From: Halobaculum sp. MBLA0143
Lineage (GTDB): Archaea; Halobacteriota; Halobacteria; Halobacteriales; Haloferacaceae
Reading direction: 5' to 3'
Length of the DNA stretch: 64,000 bases
Assembly (NCBI RefSeq): GCF_041361465.1
Contig: NZ_JBGKAC010000002.1
Location: 310,001 to 374,000, forward strand
A program made the translations under genes and the position numbers. The notes below the pieces were generated by a model that saw only the letters and a program-made list of their open reading frames with translations, ran no database searches and was not told the origin of the DNA. Of this stretch, positions 2,293-9,490 are shown one piece after another; the first letter of the stretch is position 1, and each line of letters starts with the position of its first letter.

Positions 2293-3135
2293 TCAGACAC
2301 TCTTCTCGCCGTTCGACAGGTAACTCAACAGGGTATCTCGGGATTCACGACTGTACACACCTCCAACGAATTTGTCGTAGTCCTTACGAAGAACTTTCTC
2401 GGATTCCCTGACTTTCCCCCGCCAAGACTCACCGTCAGCCGAACTAATCCCTGGGTACTGTTGTATGAGCATGTTAAGGAGTATGACAGGATCTGTCGGG
2501 GGAAACGGGATTCGTGGCTTGTCGAGAGGACTATCGCAGTAGTGGTACTCCTCTTCGGTGTAATTGATACTTGTCCGCGGCGTCTCCCCACCGACTTGGA
2601 GATGTGCCATCGGCTTCGGCTCGTCATCATTCTTACCTACATCGATGTCGAAGTGAAGTCGCCTTGCTACTCGCCAACGTCGGTCCGTACCGTTCCAGCA
2701 ACAGGGGCACGCCTCGTCGTCGGTGCTTGAGGCGGACCTCCGCTCTGTCCTCTCCTGGCTAAGAAGACAAAGGCTGAAACTGTACTGCTCAAATTCACCG
2801 TCGGCAACCCTGACCTCGCCAGAAATCTGAGCATACCCTCTAGCGTTCTCGAAGTCCGGACGCTGAACCCCCGTTTCGTCACGGCTGTCGTCTACCTCGC
2901 CGAGTACAACCTCCCACGGCGGGTCAAGTTCAAACTGCCAATCGCCTTCGAAGTCGATTCTGTCTAACAAAGCTCGTTGTTGTTCAAGCGGATTCTTTCC
3001 ACTGGGGTAGCTGAGAGCAGTGTTATCTTGGTAAGATAAGTATCTGACTGCGTCTAACAGCTGAGTTCCGAAGTCACTCGGATCAGGGACCTGATCAACA
3101 ATCCTGGTTTTTTGACTTGAACTGTCGTTACTCAT
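2293..3135 (-). CDS. Unknown CPCC-motif protein, third gene of the kinase/receiver operon
   Basis: Protein of 280 residues that I do not recognise. It starts at the ATG at 3135, 4 nt after the stop of the receiver gene, so the two are surely cotranscribed. A serine-rich start is followed by an acidic alpha/beta body. Near residue 140 there is a C-P-C-C cluster, and beyond it beta-type stretches (RRLHFDIDV, AHLQVGGE) and a Pro-rich RIPFPPTDP. The C-terminal 60 residues are helical. Cysteines are rare in haloarchaeal proteins, so CPCC suggests a metal or redox site. Base composition is lower in G+C than the surrounding core genes. Being last in an operon with a kinase-like sensor and a receiver, it may be the output protein, but this is inference only. 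Confidence 0.75.
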   Translation of the reverse strand: MSNDSSSQKTRIVDQVPDPSDFGTQLLDAVRYLSYQDNTALSYPSGKNPLEQQRALLDRIDFEGDWQFELDPPWEVVLGEVDDSRDETGVQRPDFENARGYAQISGEVRVADGEFEQYSFSLCLLSQERTERRSASSTDDEACPCCWNGTDRRWRVARRLHFDIDVGKNDDEPKPMAHLQVGGETPRTSINYTEEEYHYCDSPLDKPRIPFPPTDPVILLNMLIQQYPGISSADGESWRGKVRESEKVLRKDYDKFVGGVYSRESRDTLLSYLSNGEKSV

Positions 3136-3139
3136 ATTC

Positions 3140-4180
3140 TCACAGTTTGTTCGCAACCCGGAAGTCTGCGTACGCGCCCATTCGGGACTTGTACACGTCG
3201 CTACAACGGAAGTGGACCGGGTGTTGTGCATACTCCTCACCGGCGGTCGCCGCCGCTACCGTCTCGGGGAACGATTCATTACACACGACACACGTTGACC
3301 GTTCCTCGGCATCTGCGTCTAACAGTTCCGCACCTTTCTCCCAGGTATTGGTGAACTGGCCACTCCCTCCTTCCTCAATATCGACATCGACCAACGTGTC
3401 GATCAGCTTCGACTTCCACCACAGCGTCTCCGACGGCTCGAACACGCCGCTGTACGTCTGATTCTCCACGTCTGCGTCGGTGAGGACGTGTTCCCGATCA
3501 TCGAGTACATTTTGCTCAACGCCGAGCTTTGTCGCTGTCCACGTTCTGTTGAGGAGAAGTCCTGGGCGGGGAAGAAGGTCGTCACGCACCCACCCCGCGA
3601 ACTCTACTCCAGTCTCGGTGTCTGCGTCGGTTAGTCCACCGGTGAACTTACGTGGGACGAGTCGCTCCAGTTGCTGAGTGTCGGTCTCTGGTGGATTCAG
3701 GCAGCCCACGAGTGTCTCGATGGACTCGCCGTTCGCTTCGATTCGTCGGTAGTCGTCGATGTCAGAGACAACTTGTTCTGCCGCACCGACGAGCCTGTCC
3801 ACATCGAACGTGTCGTCGAACACCGACTCGTCAATGAAATCCGGTTGTGAACTGAGCCCATACACTGGAGTCTCGGAGAACTCCTCCCGGAGGACTCCGA
3901 CAATCGACTTCCCGGTTCCACCGAAGCGACCGTCCTCGTAGAGTTTCCAGTCTAGTAGGATGATATCGACACTCTCGTCTGAGACACGAGCTGCCCCGTT
4001 CGCGCTCGTCGTTCTGTCTTCACCATCAGTCGACTCTGATTCGAACCACAGTTTTTCAGCTACCTCGGAGGCTCTCTCGAACTTGACCACGAGCCGATTA
4101 CTACCCTCCTCAAATACCTCTGCCGACTCTTCACGGTCTGGATCGTCGTCAATCCACCACGCAGTGTATACCTCACTCAC
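3140..4180 (-). CDS. Receiver-domain (response-regulator-like) protein with C-terminal zinc finger
   Basis: Protein of 346 residues. The N-terminus (YTAWWIDDDPDREE) supplies the acidic pocket of a receiver domain. A strand ending in IILLDWKL gives the phospho-acceptor aspartate near residue 77, and PVYGLSSQP follows where the conserved Ser/Thr strand should be. The loops are longer than in ordinary CheY-like domains. The middle of the protein is unassigned. Near residue 297 there is C-V-V-C, then a His and Cys about 25 residues later, which would bind one zinc. No DNA-binding helix-turn-helix is seen, so it is unlikely to be a plain transcription factor. The start overlaps the end of the kinase gene by 8 nt, which argues for coupled translation and a cognate pair. 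Confidence 0.8.
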   Translation of the reverse strand: MSEVYTAWWIDDDPDREESAEVFEEGSNRLVVKFERASEVAEKLWFESESTDGEDRTTSANGAARVSDESVDIILLDWKLYEDGRFGGTGKSIVGVLREEFSETPVYGLSSQPDFIDESVFDDTFDVDRLVGAAEQVVSDIDDYRRIEANGESIETLVGCLNPPETDTQQLERLVPRKFTGGLTDADTETGVEFAGWVRDDLLPRPGLLLNRTWTATKLGVEQNVLDDREHVLTDADVENQTYSGVFEPSETLWWKSKLIDTLVDVDIEEGGSGQFTNTWEKGAELLDADAEERSTCVVCNESFPETVAAATAGEEYAQHPVHFRCSDVYKSRMGAYADFRVANKL

Positions 4181-6578
4181 GAAGTGTCACCTCGACACAA
4201 GTACTCCAACCGTTCATCTCTGGGAATCTTACTGTACCTCCGTATTTCGAAGATATATTATTAACGATGTGAAGGCCTAATCCGCTCCCGTTACCCAACT
4301 GATCTACGAGTTCCTCCGGCATGTTGTCTTGGAGACTGTCGTACATCTCCCCAGAGGGGTCGGAGACGAGTGGCTCCGTCACCCTGTCGGCGACATCGTC
4401 CGAGATCCCGATTCCATCGTCAAGGACACGGATTGCGACGCCGTCGTCGATCTTCTCTCCACGGACCTCGATCCGACCGGCGTTGTTCCCCGTTGCTGCG
4501 ATTGCTTTGATCGAGTTCGTGACGAGGTTGATCAAGATTGAGGACACCTCCGAGTCGTACATCGGTGGTGTCTGGAGTAGGCTGGGAACGGACACCTCGA
4601 CTTCGATGCCGTAGAACTCGCAGATGTACGAGACAGCATCTACGATCTGGTCGGTCGCGTCGGCGAGCGTGACCGCCGACTGCTCTTGATCGTCGGCGAC
4701 TCCCGCGAACGTCCCGAACAGGTCCATGTGCTGTTTCAGTCGCCCCTGAACCTCCTGCATCGACTCGGAAATTTCCCTAAACTCATCGCGCTGCTCCTGT
4801 GGAAGGTCGTTGAGGTTGTTCTCGATCCGAACCGCGTTCTGGCTCAGTTCGTGTGTCATGTTCCGGAGTTCGTGAGACAGCGAGAACACGACTTGATTCA
4901 CTGAGAACGCCGACCGGAAGAAGTCGATCTTGCCGTCTTTTTGCTGGAGAGAACTACGGATCACGTCTGTCGCTTTCTCGACGGTGTCCGTGTCGACTGT
5001 GCTGGCCGTGCTGCTGCTCTCCCCTTCTTCCTCCCCATCGCTTTGATCTGTCCCGTCTCTTTCACCGTCCGCGGTAGAGGCGGATCCACCGCTTTCGGCT
5101 ACTGTGGAGGCTGTCTTTTCGAGGAAATTCATCGCAGCGTCGACGACCTCCTCCTCGGAGGATGTCGTGTCCGAACCGTCGTCAGACGAATCAGTGAACT
5201 GATCGATTCCAGCCTCTTCGTCATCAGAGTCTGATCCGGCACTCTTCTCGAACTCCTCTTTCGCCTCCTCTACTTCTTCCATCTTTAGCTTGTGCTTGTA
5301 GTTACTGTACTGAAGCACCATCCACTCGATAGAGAGCCGGACAGCTTGCTTCAGGTTCTTGAAGCCATCTCCCTCGGCAGTGAACTCCTCACGGTTTGCC
5401 TGCATTTCGAGAACCGACTCCGGTGAAACGTTCACCCGACCGATAAGTTGGTTGTTTCTTGGATGTATAGTTAAAATGTTACTAAAGTCTCTGTGGTACT
5501 CTGTTTCACTTTTTAGCTCATGAAACTTTTTATCCGGATTACGCTTCCGTGCTGCAACTTTCTCATCGAGTCCCAACCAATCGTCTTCTGGTCCACCGTA
5601 CGAGTGGACGCGGAATCCGTCTTTATACACTCGAACACCGGCGTACTCATCTCGAATATCACCGATCCGCTCTAAGCTCAGCGTTCCAGTGTCACGAAGG
5701 TGTTTCCGCTCTTCTGGCGGCCAAGAGATCTTGAACGCCGTCCCATCTAGCCCGTCCGTATCGAACGAAAATTCGTAGTTTCGCTCGCCAATCTTCTTTG
5801 CTTCGAGGTTCACAGACACCATTCCGTTACTGATCTGTCCGGTGAGCGTCCCCCAACTGGCGTCGTGGACCTGTTCTAGAAGACTCGCATCTGCGGCGTC
5901 GAACTCCGGAGCGTCAAAGTTGATGTCGAACCCTGGATCCGGCTCGTAGCTGTCCCGATTTGCCGACTCAACGAGCGAGAGCGTGACGATATTCCGTCGA
6001 AGCGTGTTGAAATGGCGTTTGTTCCACTCGTCCCGGAGGTCAACGAGTTCTAGTGTCGTCCCGGCCTCGACATCTGCTGTCGAGTTTAGTCGCTCCACCT
6101 CAATTCGAACTGGAATCTCGTCGAGGTCAAGTTGTCGCTCAAACCTCTCCCAGTCGAAGTTCATCCGAATCCGCTGGTATTGGTCGGTCACAGGGTCCTT
6201 CGACACCGACGTGAGGTACAGTTCGTCTGCCAGCCGGCGAACAGCGAACCGCCCGATTCCCTTGTCACCAGCCTTCTTTCTGCCGTACTTCTCGGTCCGT
6301 GGGTTCTGGAGCTTATCCGTAGTCGCAACTCGCATCCAGCCGTCTCGGATATCGTCGGTCGTCATCCCGGTTCCATCGTCTCTCACGATGATTCTGCTGT
6401 CTTCGTCGCCTTCGCGCGCGTTCTCAAAGATCAGATCAACCTCCGTCGCGTCCGCGTCGTAGGCGTTCTTCACGAGTTCTGCGAGCGCGACGTGGTTCCG
6501 CGTGACGAGGTTCTCCCCTAATTCCTCTAGCAGTCGGCTATCGACAGTAAACGTAACCTCTTCAGGACTGTCGGGCAT
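4173..6578 (-). CDS. Dual-GHKL protein: Hsp90-like ATPase fused to a histidine kinase
   Basis: Protein of 801 residues with two separate GHKL ATP-binding modules. The first (about 10-180) has ALAELVKNAYDADATEVDL, DDGTGM near 67-72 and GDKGIGR near 104-110, the order seen in Hsp90/MutL/MORC-type ATPases. A beta-rich middle follows (180-430), then a charged, Ser/Asp-rich linker (about 440-540). The second module is a histidine kinase: SLSHELRN with candidate phospho-His near 569, ILINLVTNSIKAI near 684, DDGIGIS near 720 and GNGSGLGL near 762. There is no transmembrane segment, so it is a soluble sensor. It is first in an operon with the receiver gene (8-nt overlap). Kinases with an extra Hsp90-like domain occur in defence loci and two-component systems; the trigger here is unknown. 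A TATA-like box 25-32 nt upstream suggests a leaderless message. Confidence 0.85.
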   Translation of the reverse strand: MPDSPEEVTFTVDSRLLEELGENLVTRNHVALAELVKNAYDADATEVDLIFENAREGDEDSRIIVRDDGTGMTTDDIRDGWMRVATTDKLQNPRTEKYGRKKAGDKGIGRFAVRRLADELYLTSVSKDPVTDQYQRIRMNFDWERFERQLDLDEIPVRIEVERLNSTADVEAGTTLELVDLRDEWNKRHFNTLRRNIVTLSLVESANRDSYEPDPGFDINFDAPEFDAADASLLEQVHDASWGTLTGQISNGMVSVNLEAKKIGERNYEFSFDTDGLDGTAFKISWPPEERKHLRDTGTLSLERIGDIRDEYAGVRVYKDGFRVHSYGGPEDDWLGLDEKVAARKRNPDKKFHELKSETEYHRDFSNILTIHPRNNQLIGRVNVSPESVLEMQANREEFTAEGDGFKNLKQAVRLSIEWMVLQYSNYKHKLKMEEVEEAKEEFEKSAGSDSDDEEAGIDQFTDSSDDGSDTTSSEEEVVDAAMNFLEKTASTVAESGGSASTADGERDGTDQSDGEEEGESSSTASTVDTDTVEKATDVIRSSLQQKDGKIDFFRSAFSVNQVVFSLSHELRNMTHELSQNAVRIENNLNDLPQEQRDEFREISESMQEVQGRLKQHMDLFGTFAGVADDQEQSAVTLADATDQIVDAVSYICEFYGIEVEVSVPSLLQTPPMYDSEVSSILINLVTNSIKAIAATGNNAGRIEVRGEKIDDGVAIRVLDDGIGISDDVADRVTEPLVSDPSGEMYDSLQDNMPEELVDQLGNGSGLGLHIVNNISSKYGGTVRFPEMNGWSTCVEVTLRE

Positions 6579-6601
6579 CTAGATGTGAATTTCGGCGCTA
6601 A

Positions 6602-6611
6602 ACTATTAAAA
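6602..6611. promoter_or_regulatory. Shared TATA-like element between divergent genes
   Basis: CTATTAAAAG is the only AT-rich stretch in the short gap between the divergent kinase and metallopeptidase genes. It sits about 28 nt from the kinase ATG (6578) on one side and about 28 nt from the GTG at 6634 on the other. Both distances suit a TATA box serving a leaderless transcript, so one element may drive, or switch between, both directions. Confidence 0.45.
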
Positions 6612-6633
6612 GTGTGTGGGGACAGATGCGGAC

Positions 6634-7377
6634 GTGAGAGACGACCGTGCGGACGCGACGTTCACCACGTCCGACGAACGGCGTGTGCCGTGTGTCGTCC
6701 AGCACGGCGACAGCGACGACCCACGGCTCAGGCTCACACCCGACGGTGCCGTCCGTGTCACGCTCCCGGACAGAGACGCTCCGCCCGTCGACGACGTTCT
6801 CGAAGCGAACCGGGACTGGATCGAGCGACAGTACGAACGCCAACACGAACGGCTCGGTCGCGTCGAGCGCCAGTTCGGCGACCTCACGACTGGCCTCGTC
6901 GTCTGGGGGTACACGTTCGACTTCGAGACGCGCGAGGGCCAGTACGACCTCACAGTCGACTCCGGCAGGATCACCGTCTCGGCGCCGACGGGGCGGAGTC
7001 CACTCGCGTTCCTGAAGAACAGGCTCGCCAGTCGACTCCGTGATACCGTCGTGTCGATGGCCGACCGGGTCGCTCCGAAGCTCGACGGTGACTACGAGAC
7101 GGTTCAGATCCGTAACCAGGCGACGAAGTGGGCGAGCTACTCCACGACCGGAACACTCTCGTTCAACGTCCGGTGTGGCTTCCTCCCGTTGGGATACGTC
7201 CGGTATCTCGTCGCCCACGAACTCGCACACTCGGTCAACACTTCACACGACGCCGCGTTCTGGTCGCTCGTCGAGACGGTCGTCGACGACCCGCGCCAGC
7301 GATCCACAGAACTGGAGGGGTTCGCGGCGGCACTCGGACGGAACGAGGTGTGGGGAGAGATCCTCGCCGAGTGGTGA
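6634..7377 (+). CDS. YgjP-type (DUF45, M48-like) zinc metallopeptidase
   Basis: Protein of 247 residues with the YgjP/WLM layout. An N-terminal beta part ends in DVLEANRDWIERQ, a central linker follows, and the C-terminus holds the zinc site H-E-L-A-H with the third ligand about 10 residues on in TSHDAAFW. The glutamate of HELAH is the catalytic base. In bacteria this family is often encoded near type I restriction genes, and here it lies between a kinase operon and a DNA methylase. I chose the GTG at 6634 over the GTG at 6616 because the TATA-like box lies about 28 nt upstream of it. Its stop is 7 nt from the convergent methylase stop, so the two genes share little or no terminator space. 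Confidence 0.85.
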   Translation: MRDDRADATFTTSDERRVPCVVQHGDSDDPRLRLTPDGAVRVTLPDRDAPPVDDVLEANRDWIERQYERQHERLGRVERQFGDLTTGLVVWGYTFDFETREGQYDLTVDSGRITVSAPTGRSPLAFLKNRLASRLRDTVVSMADRVAPKLDGDYETVQIRNQATKWASYSTTGTLSFNVRCGFLPLGYVRYLVAHELAHSVNTSHDAAFWSLVETVVDDPRQRSTELEGFAAALGRNEVWGEILAEW

Positions 7378-7384
7378 CGCCACG

Positions 7385-9490
7385 TTAGGCCGCGAGCGAG
7401 GGGAGCCTGTCGAGTGCGTCTTCGACAACCGCGTCGAGTTCTTCTCGGGCCGCTTCGACATCTTCCCCCGCGGCGATGCTGTCACACAGCTGCTCGAACG
7501 CGGACGACAACGTTTCGACCTGACTCTCGGTCAGGTGCGCGGGGTCGATCACGGGTACATCCTCCAGGTCGGAGATTTCGAGTTTCCCGAGGTCGTCGGC
7601 ATACTTCCGGCTCAGGTGTCGTGTGACCCGGTCCGCGACGGTGCTGTTCAGGTACGCGAGGACCGCTCTGGCTGCGTCTGCGTCGCCGTCGTGGAGGTAG
7701 ACGTTGTGGAGGTTGTTCAGCGTCCGAACGTCGGCCTCGTTCACAAAGAAGTCGAAGCCGGACTTGCTCATGTACGTCGCCAGGATGTCCGGCGGGTCCC
7801 GGCGGTCGACGGCGTACCACGGACTACGAGAGCCCGCGAGGTGGGTGTCTCTCGCGCCGAGTTCCTCACCACGGTCAAGATACGCCGCCAGCGCATCGTC
7901 GGCGTCTCGATCGACTGGGTTGCCGTCTTCGTCGTAACAGTAGAGTAACCAGACTGTCTCGCCAGCGTCGCGCCGTCGCTCCCAGTGATCCTCGTCGACC
8001 CGAAGCGCCTCCATCCCGTCCGTCCGGCGGAGAGTCCGAACTAGATACTCCTCGTCGAGCCCGTACGCTTCGACATCCGCCCGAGTCAGACAGAAGAAGT
8101 CGTTCATCCCGGTCGCAATCCCGCGCTTGATGTCGGCAATTTCCCCGAACGACCGGAGTTCCGGGAGCGAGTCCAACGAGTCCGGACGGACGTAGTTCCG
8201 CCAGTCTTCGTCGGCCTCTAGCTCTGCCTGTTCGAGTGTCCTCGCGTACCCGAACGCCGTCGGTCCCGACGGCTCGGCTTCGAGACAGTCGAGAATCGTC
8301 GCCGGCTCTGCCTCGTGTTCGACGCTGAGGAACGTTGTCGGCGCGGTCGTCTCTCCCGGATCGCGTTCCAACAGGGTGACACACGGCGTGACCCGTGCAC
8401 CGTCGAAAGCTTCGAGACCAGACTCAAGGAAAATCACCCCTCGGACGTGGAACTGTTCGAGGAGGAACGACCGCAGCCGTTCGCCGTAGTTCGTGTCACA
8501 GAATCGAGCGGGCGTCAGGAACGTCATCCGACCCTGTTCGCGCAGGAACTGGGTCGCGTGAGCGAAGAAGTAGACGTACAACGGAGTGTGTTCCGTGACC
8601 GACAGCCCCGCCCTGGCGTCGACGATCCGGTTGAACCGCTTCCGGTCGTCGTCGAGCGCTCCACTCCGAGAGTACGGCGGATTCGAGACGATCGCGTCGA
8701 CCTCCGGAAGCGCGACGGGGTCCTGCTGTCCGATTGTCGTCTCACTGCCACGGGGGCAGGCGTCCATGAAGTCCGTTACTTCCAGATTGGGCGCACCGAC
8801 CCCGTCGTCGAGCTTCAGCCCGGTCGCAGCCATCGTCACCGCCAACGGGCTCAGGTCAACCCCGTAGAGATCCTCAACTGACGCCCGCTTCCCGCCCTGG
8901 CGACGCTTTGCCTCGAACGCGCTCGCAGAGAGGACGCCAGTACCGACGCCGGGGTCGAGAATCGTGTCGTCTCCGTCGCGAACTGCCCACCTCGCCATCA
9001 GCTCGCTCACTGTGCTGGAGGTGTAGAACTGTCCCTGCCGGCGACGGGCCGATTGGACGACGAGTCGCTCGAACAGTTCGCCGATCAGCCGCGTCGGATC
9101 GGCGGCGTCGACGAGTTCGTCCCGAGAGTCCAGCAGTCGCTCGAACGCCTCTGTGTCGAGGTGCATCGCAAGTTCGTCCAGTTTCCACGGGTCGAGCCCG
9201 TCGTCGCCAGTCTGTGAAGCCGCTGCTCTGAAGTCCGACACGATTTCTTTCGGGTCTTCGAGCGGATCCAGACTTTCGAACTCTTCGCGGTGACGGCGGT
9301 AGAGCGTCGACTTCAACAGGAGGTTGAACGCACAGAGGACAGACACTGTCTCGTCGGGACTGTTGGCCTCTTCGAGACCGAGCCTGTCGAGCACGGCTTC
9401 GGTGTCGACAGTTGCCGCGGATTGGAGTCGCTCTTCGAAGCCGTAACCGACATCCTCGACAGCGTGACGGAGCTTGTCGACATCACTCAT
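7385..9490 (-). CDS. N6-adenine DNA methyltransferase (gamma class, N-S-M layout), solitary
   Basis: Protein of 701 residues. A helical N-terminal region of about 150 residues leads to RRQGQFYTSSTVSELMARW, then motif I (ILDPGVGTGVLSASAFEA) for S-adenosylmethionine and motif IV (VSNPPYSRSG), the N-P-P-Y of adenine-N6 methylases. Motifs typical of the Eco57I/type IIG group follow (TFLTPARFCDTNYGE). The C-terminal 300 residues should carry target recognition. I see no PD-(D/E)XK nuclease motif in it, and no restriction enzyme gene lies beside it, so it is either an orphan methylase or depends on an unrecognised nuclease. A TATA-like TTATAT at 9528-9533 lies about 40 nt upstream of the ATG. It is convergent with the metallopeptidase gene. 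Confidence 0.85.
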   Translation of the reverse strand: MSDVDKLRHAVEDVGYGFEERLQSAATVDTEAVLDRLGLEEANSPDETVSVLCAFNLLLKSTLYRRHREEFESLDPLEDPKEIVSDFRAAASQTGDDGLDPWKLDELAMHLDTEAFERLLDSRDELVDAADPTRLIGELFERLVVQSARRRQGQFYTSSTVSELMARWAVRDGDDTILDPGVGTGVLSASAFEAKRRQGGKRASVEDLYGVDLSPLAVTMAATGLKLDDGVGAPNLEVTDFMDACPRGSETTIGQQDPVALPEVDAIVSNPPYSRSGALDDDRKRFNRIVDARAGLSVTEHTPLYVYFFAHATQFLREQGRMTFLTPARFCDTNYGERLRSFLLEQFHVRGVIFLESGLEAFDGARVTPCVTLLERDPGETTAPTTFLSVEHEAEPATILDCLEAEPSGPTAFGYARTLEQAELEADEDWRNYVRPDSLDSLPELRSFGEIADIKRGIATGMNDFFCLTRADVEAYGLDEEYLVRTLRRTDGMEALRVDEDHWERRRDAGETVWLLYCYDEDGNPVDRDADDALAAYLDRGEELGARDTHLAGSRSPWYAVDRRDPPDILATYMSKSGFDFFVNEADVRTLNNLHNVYLHDGDADAARAVLAYLNSTVADRVTRHLSRKYADDLGKLEISDLEDVPVIDPAHLTESQVETLSSAFEQLCDSIAAGEDVEAAREELDAVVEDALDRLPSLAA

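What the first reader, a model, noticed from the sequence alone, without database searches (positions are those of the whole stretch)
2293..6578. Three-gene operon: dual-GHKL kinase, receiver protein with zinc finger, CPCC protein
Seen: one protein has both an Hsp90/MORC-like ATPase (N37, DDGTGM, GDKGIGR) and a histidine kinase (H569, GNGSGLGL). A receiver-like protein overlaps it by 8 nt, and a third gene follows 4 nt later. No DNA-binding domain is present in the receiver, so the output is unlikely to be simple transcription. Known: GHKL ATPases of MORC type occur in restriction-related loci, and a two-component-like defence system (Detocs) uses a kinase, a receiver and an effector. Inference: this could be a comparable sensing and relay module with the CPCC protein as effector.
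Basis: partly seen in the sequence, partly recalled or inferred. Interest (0 to 1): 0.78.

Follow-up and report, generated by a model that had tools for sequence, protein, structure and literature searches.

The report
Methylase-linked two-component operon, exchangeable effector
A haloarchaeon carries a mobile cassette in which a DNA methylase sits beside a double-ATPase sensor kinase, a receiver and a third protein that, in relatives, is swapped for DNA-cutting or other defence enzymes, so it is probably a restriction-like immune system run through a phosphate relay.

Summary
Minus strand 6578-2293 encodes A, an 801-aa kinase (paraMORC-type GHKL ATPase plus histidine kinase), B, a receiver protein overlapping A by 8 nt, and C, a 280-aa protein starting 4 nt later (ATG 3135). 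The cassette also has a divergent YgjP peptidase (6616-7377) and an adenine-type DNA methylase (9490-7385). A, B, C and a methylase stay together in every intact haloarchaeal locus found, in other genomes of the phylum and in bacterial or proviral DNA. Only 7 of 243 genomes of the order carry the kinase. The kinase-receiver pair is the same kind as the bacterial HEF_HK/Response_reg_2 pair published in 2021, although neither Pfam model matches at its cut-off. Apparently unreported: in N6-methylase versions the gene after the receiver is an exchangeable slot, holding an HNH nuclease resembling PtuB of Septu (10 loci), a metallo-beta-lactamase-fold hydrolase (6), or C (13 firm, 6 probable loci besides close haloarchaeal ones). 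'CPCC' is not the conserved core; H161, D163, H178 and R208 are. C has no recognised fold or activity. Defence function and phosphotransfer are inferred. New variant of a known kind.

The parts
4173..6578 (-). Gene A: 801-aa soluble dual-GHKL protein; N-terminal paraMORC-type ATPase (residues about 1-430, E34/N38, DDGTGM, GDKGIGR), acidic linker, DHp with H569, C-terminal kinase ATPase 678-800
   Evidence: Pfam HATPase_c_3 and HATPase_c; similarity to the N-terminus of BbrUII/HgiDII restriction enzymes and PADLOC REase_II models; boxes and H569 invariant in relatives
3140..4180 (-). Gene B: 346-aa receiver protein; REC 1-150 with D77, helical middle part, CxxC...HxxC tail
   Evidence: CheY fold in AlphaFold2 model; invariant D11, D12, D77, S110; weak PF19192 match, E 0.083
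2293..3135 (-). Gene C: 280-aa protein in the effector slot; conserved H161, D163, H178, Q180, R208
   Evidence: start by sequence; alignment; no family match; slot analysis
6616..7377 (+). YgjP-like metallopeptidase, divergent from A; accessory, missing in one haloarchaeal locus
   Evidence: PF01863, E 4e-32; present in most haloarchaeal copies
7385..9490 (-). DNA methylase M (N6_Mtase/Eco57I type, NPPY motif), 701 aa
   Evidence: Pfam PF02384 and PF07669, PADLOC MTase_II; in all intact haloarchaeal copies
6579..6615 (-). 37-nt spacer between divergent A and YgjP with a TATA-like TTTTAATA about 28 nt before A's ATG; a leaderless promoter by inspection only
   Evidence: sequence; inference

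Best explanation
The locus is a mobile, methylase-linked immune (restriction-like) cassette run by a two-component relay. M methylates the host's own DNA at its site. A's N-terminal paraMORC-type ATPase is the sensor, probably closing on foreign or unmethylated DNA or on a DNA-processing intermediate. This lets the C-terminal kinase phosphorylate H569. The phosphate passes to D77 of B, and B's C-terminal half then releases or activates C, the effector, whose H-x-D / H-x-Q / R site suggests a metal-dependent hydrolase. Shown: the genes, their domains, their co-conservation, and the exchange of the C slot with HNH and MBL enzymes. Inferred: the signal, phosphotransfer, activation of C by B, C's enzymatic activity, and defence as the outcome.
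For: A-B-C in the same order with a methylase in all complete haloarchaeal loci, in five more distant archaeal loci (one of these runs off its contig inside A) and in bacterial or proviral loci. The shared block ends sharply at these genes and A-C have 53-57% GC against 69% in the flanks. Patchy distribution, 7 of 243 genomes, and a plasmid copy. The slot after the receiver holds HNH nucleases resembling PtuB, MBL hydrolases resembling the RTasMBL, LmuA and Avs1a models, or C, none homologous to another. A resembles restriction-enzyme GHKL ATPases at its N-terminus. Kinase and receiver active residues are kept.
Against: No function has been tested. C has no known fold and its activity is unknown. 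The haloarchaeal receivers lack the usual Lys after beta-5, so phosphorylation may be atypical. B may contain a DNA-binding part, which would allow a regulatory role instead. The flanks of the window copy are ordinary genes, not a defence island.
Confidence: 0.6

Rival explanations
1. A two-component regulator of a restriction-modification locus: A senses cell state and B, through an HTH-like middle part, controls transcription of the methylase and neighbours; C is a co-regulator or adaptor, not an effector.
For: B's middle part is helical with an HTH-like segment; Bellieny-Rabelo et al. suggested regulation of R-M systems (PMC8011034); no nuclease is recognisable in the haloarchaeal cassette.
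Against: C is replaced by HNH and MBL enzymes at the same position, which are enzymes and not regulators; the receivers of those versions are only about 210-250 aa, leaving little room for an output domain.
Confidence: 0.2
2. A is itself the cutting or DNA-handling part (a HgiDII/BbrUII-like ATPase), with kinase, receiver and C only tuning it.
For: A's N-terminus matches the N-terminal part of BbrUII/HgiDII-type restriction enzymes (NCBIfam E 3.5e-25) and PADLOC REase_II models.
Against: The match covers only the ATPase part (residues 9-237 of A) and is far below the family cut-off (88.6 against 550 bits); the rest of A is a kinase; separate nucleases sit in the slot in relatives.
Confidence: 0.1
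3. An ordinary environmental two-component system that happens to lie next to a methylase.
For: Histidine kinases are common in haloarchaea, and nothing here shows what signal A reads.
Against: The methylase association recurs in haloarchaea, elsewhere in the phylum and in distant bacteria; distribution is patchy.
Confidence: 0.05

Closest known systems
HEF_HK (PF19191) / Response_reg_2 (PF19192) two-component-like system of bacteria, Bellieny-Rabelo et al. 2021 (PMC8011034)
   Same: Soluble kinase with N-terminal HATPase_c_3 and C-terminal HATPase_c, adjacent receiver gene, linkage to DNA methylases, proposed paraMORC origin
   Different: Archaeal; adenine-type instead of mostly C5 methylase; a third gene in an effector slot; neither Pfam model reaches its cut-off
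Detocs (defensive two-component system; known from memory, cited in PMC10952713)
   Same: Logic of kinase, receiver, effector; different effectors in one architecture (recalled, not tested)
   Different: Here the sensor is a paraMORC-type ATPase, a DNA methylase is part of the cassette, and no PNP-type effector was seen
paraMORC/MORC GHKL ATPases in R-M operons, Iyer et al. 2008 (PMC2292703)
   Same: N-terminal GHKL ATPase next to methylases and sometimes HNH nucleases
   Different: Fused here to a full histidine kinase and paired with a receiver
Septu PtuB HNH, and MBL proteins of Lamassu, Avs1 and DRT systems (PADLOC models)
   Same: Proteins that replace C in relatives match these defence models
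   Different: C itself matches none of them; in the C-type loci the output protein is paired with a kinase and receiver

Membership tests
HEF_HK / Response_reg_2 system | HEF_HK Pfam model PF19191 over its cut-off (24.1 bits) | tested here: not met
   12.9 bits, E 0.56; the only hit in the whole genome, but it lies within A. Plasmid relatives also fail it, so the model may be narrow.
HEF_HK / Response_reg_2 system | Response_reg_2 model PF19192 over its cut-off (27 bits) | tested here: not met
   13.4 bits, E 0.083 for B
HEF_HK / Response_reg_2 system | N-terminal HATPase_c_3 plus C-terminal HATPase_c in one soluble kinase, adjacent to a receiver gene | tested here: met
HEF_HK / Response_reg_2 system | Linkage to DNA methylases | tested here: met
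   type differs (N6 here, mostly C5 in the paper)
Two-component system (histidine kinase and receiver) | Phospho-acceptor His in DHp, kinase N/G boxes, receiver acidic pair and Asp in a CheY fold | tested here: met
   activity itself not testable here
Two-component system (histidine kinase and receiver) | His-Asp phosphotransfer | not testable with these tools
   needs purified proteins
Detocs | Homology to DtcA, DtcB and DtcC | not tested
   no Detocs reference sequence was compared; PADLOC scans named no Detocs model, but presence of such a model in that library was not checked
paraMORC / MORC GHKL-S5 ATPase | GHKL ATP-binding motifs followed by an S5-type domain | tested here: inconclusive
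   GHKL motifs met; an S5 domain was not tested by structure
Restriction-modification system | DNA methylase with a cognate restriction endonuclease | tested here: inconclusive
   methylase present; no recognisable endonuclease in the haloarchaeal cassette; HNH nucleases occupy the same slot in relatives

The most novel reading that the evidence does not exclude
A restriction-modification system in which self/non-self discrimination (methylase plus paraMORC sensor) is separated from destruction by a two-component phosphorelay with interchangeable output enzymes, one of which (C) is a new effector or nuclease family found in archaea and bacteria.
Probability: 0.42. Interest if true: 0.85.

Novelty: new variant of a known kind. 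Interest (0 to 1): 0.66.

Why it matters
Classical restriction systems read DNA and cut it within one enzyme or complex. A version that passes the decision through a histidine-aspartate relay would let one sensor drive different outputs, linking restriction-modification with Detocs-like signalling immunity. It would suggest a function for the bacterial HEF_HK/Response_reg_2 pair described in 2021 without one, extend it to archaea, and nominate a new effector family with a testable active site.

Tried and rejected
C as a known family: no match in Pfam, NCBIfam, PADLOC, PDB sequences, Foldseek PDB (best E 0.3) or viral models (best E 0.14); VIA-align best Z 3.9, not meaningful. The C model has only moderate confidence, so a missed match is possible. 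C as an HNH or MBL relative: no support in hhalign. CPCC as a defining motif: rejected by alignment. Third genes of the type YRFEHP...FFHxQP (L048, L054, L061, L062, L076) look C-like by eye but hhalign gives no support, so they are not counted as C, although labels them C. C in viral contigs by direct pattern scan: none; it was reached through the kinase instead. Empty insertion site in a sister genome: only the acyl-CoA dehydrogenase gene matched and its surroundings differ, so insertion is not shown directly. Regex-based effector and methylase calls were too crude and were replaced by phmmer-based ones. A MAFFT alignment of all kinases timed out; hmmalign was used, in which about 50 kinases did not align in their C-terminal half, so conservation of H569 is shown only for the 35 that did.

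Full report
What is there. On the minus strand, A (6578-4173) is an 801-residue protein with two GHKL ATPase modules: HATPase_c_3 at residues 29-157 and HATPase_c at 678-800. B (4180-3140) overlaps A by 8 nt. C starts at ATG 3135, four nt after B's stop, and ends at 2293. Divergent from A lies a YgjP-like metallopeptidase (6616-7377), then a DNA methylase with N6_Mtase and Eco57I matches (9490-7385).

Setting. The window lies on the smaller contig of a 3.58-Mb genome whose relatives are haloarchaea. A, B and C have 53-57% GC, the methylase 63%, and the flanks 69%. The flanking genes are ordinary: a cupin, an acyl-CoA dehydrogenase, a metal exporter, a ferritin.

Conservation in archaea. B is found in 6 of 243 genomes of the order and A in 7. 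Each of these loci also has C and a methylase, with A-B-C in order. Public contigs add Halorubrum aidingense, Salinadaptatus halalkaliphilus, Haloferax elongans and a contig-end fragment in Halorientalis persicus where only C is left. One copy sits on a Halomicrobium plasmid. Comparing all genes within about 10 kb shows that the methylase, YgjP, A, B and C are shared and that other genes match only between one or two loci. YgjP is missing in the Natrinema locus. A profile of C over 295 genomes of the phylum finds four distant relatives outside the order (taxa not named by the tool), each directly behind a B, with A before it and a methylase beside it.

Conservation in bacteria. Relatives of A occur on plasmids and in 65 IMG/VR contigs. 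With a first model of C, loci from both the viral collection and the distant archaea were recognised as carrying C behind a B-like receiver. Profile-profile comparison confirms that haloarchaeal C is homologous to two further groups (99.8%, E 7e-29; 98.4%, E 5e-14), links a third through one of them (95%, E 8e-9) and makes a fourth probable (66%, E 7e-6). Invariant residues across the 15 aligned C proteins are H161, D163, P175, H178, G183, P207, R208, P213 and Y253; Q180 is Gln or His.

The effector slot. In 85 kinase loci the gene directly after the receiver falls into classes. Receivers of 209-248 aa, REC plus a short tail, are followed by HNH nucleases (10 loci) or MBL-fold hydrolases (6). 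Receivers of about 340-410 aa are followed by C or C-like proteins. Receivers of about 400-480 aa more often have no third gene and, where a methylase was found, it is a C5 methylase. The HNH protein tested scores against PtuB of Septu (E 1.6e-12) and Pfam HNH; the MBL protein tested scores against RTasMBL, LmuA and Avs1a models. HNH, MBL and C show no homology to one another. Three unrelated proteins at one position in homologous operons, two of them typical defence effectors, is the main reason to call C an effector. Some loci are near-duplicates (L057/L058, L068/L070, and a few groups at 60-70% kinase identity), so the counts are not all independent events. Thirteen firm and six probable C loci are in this table besides the close haloarchaeal group; one search also labels as C some proteins that one search does not support.

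Relay chemistry. The kinase boxes and H569 are invariant in the haloarchaeal proteins, and H569 is kept in all 35 relatives whose C-terminal half aligned, including the HNH and C versions shown. B's first 150 residues form a CheY fold in the AlphaFold2 model, with D11, D12, D77 and S110 invariant. The Lys usually found after beta-5 is not seen in the haloarchaeal receivers (by inspection), so phosphorylation may be atypical. The rest of B is helical, includes an HTH-like segment and ends in a CxxC...HxxC motif kept in haloarchaea and some bacteria; its fold was not identified.

C. The AlphaFold2 model (pLDDT 69, pTM 0.72) shows five strands, the fourth carrying H161 and D163 and the fifth H178 and Q180, then helices. 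No solved or viral structure matches convincingly. The H-x-D, H-x-Q and Arg pattern would suit a metal-dependent hydrolase, but that is a guess.

Relation to what is known. Bellieny-Rabelo and colleagues described the bacterial HEF_HK/Response_reg_2 pair with C5 methylases and suggested a paraMORC origin (PMC8011034). By architecture this is the same kind of system; by Pfam cut-offs the archaeal proteins are not members. That paper's main text does not treat archaea or MBL proteins and mentions HNH only as an enriched neighbour; literature searches gave no report of the archaeal form, of the exchangeable third gene or of C. The library holds only open-licence papers, so an unseen report is possible. 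Detocs is the closest working analogy, but membership was not tested.

Verdict. A real, mobile-looking, methylase-linked two-component cassette with a new third-gene family in an exchangeable effector slot. Defence is the most likely role (about 0.6 for the full statement); C as a nuclease in particular is less certain (about 0.35).

Noticed in passing
L035:8782-9459 (Stenotrophomonas rhizophila GA1 plasmid): The effector slot holds a 226-aa protein with SHG and ISCGT motifs that look caspase/CHAT-like by eye; neither Pfam nor PADLOC matches it.
   Followed up: partly
L048:7963-8622, L054:11361-12020, L061:8388-9032, L076:8248-8946: A separate third-gene family with YRFEHP...FFHxQP follows long receivers in C5-methylase versions; possibly a very distant C relative, but hhalign gives no support.
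   Followed up: partly
L023:1210-6847 (Hymenobacter sp. PAMC 26628 plasmid): A Piwi-domain protein and a second large DNA methyltransferase lie just upstream of a C-type kinase locus.
   Followed up: no
L024:7995-12460 (Campylobacter jejuni conjugative plasmid): A dual-GHKL kinase and response regulator sit with a dcm methylase on plasmids of Campylobacter; 41 of the 78 plasmid records with a match are Campylobacter.
   Followed up: no
window 2293-9490: GC is 53-57% in A-C but 63-66% in the methylase and YgjP genes, against 69% in the flanks, so the two halves of the cassette may differ in age or origin.
   Followed up: partly
L120:5330-7330: In the divergent haloarchaeal copy (G050) a 666-aa ORF and a 137-aa ORF lie between the methylase-like gene and the kinase; not identified.
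   Followed up: no
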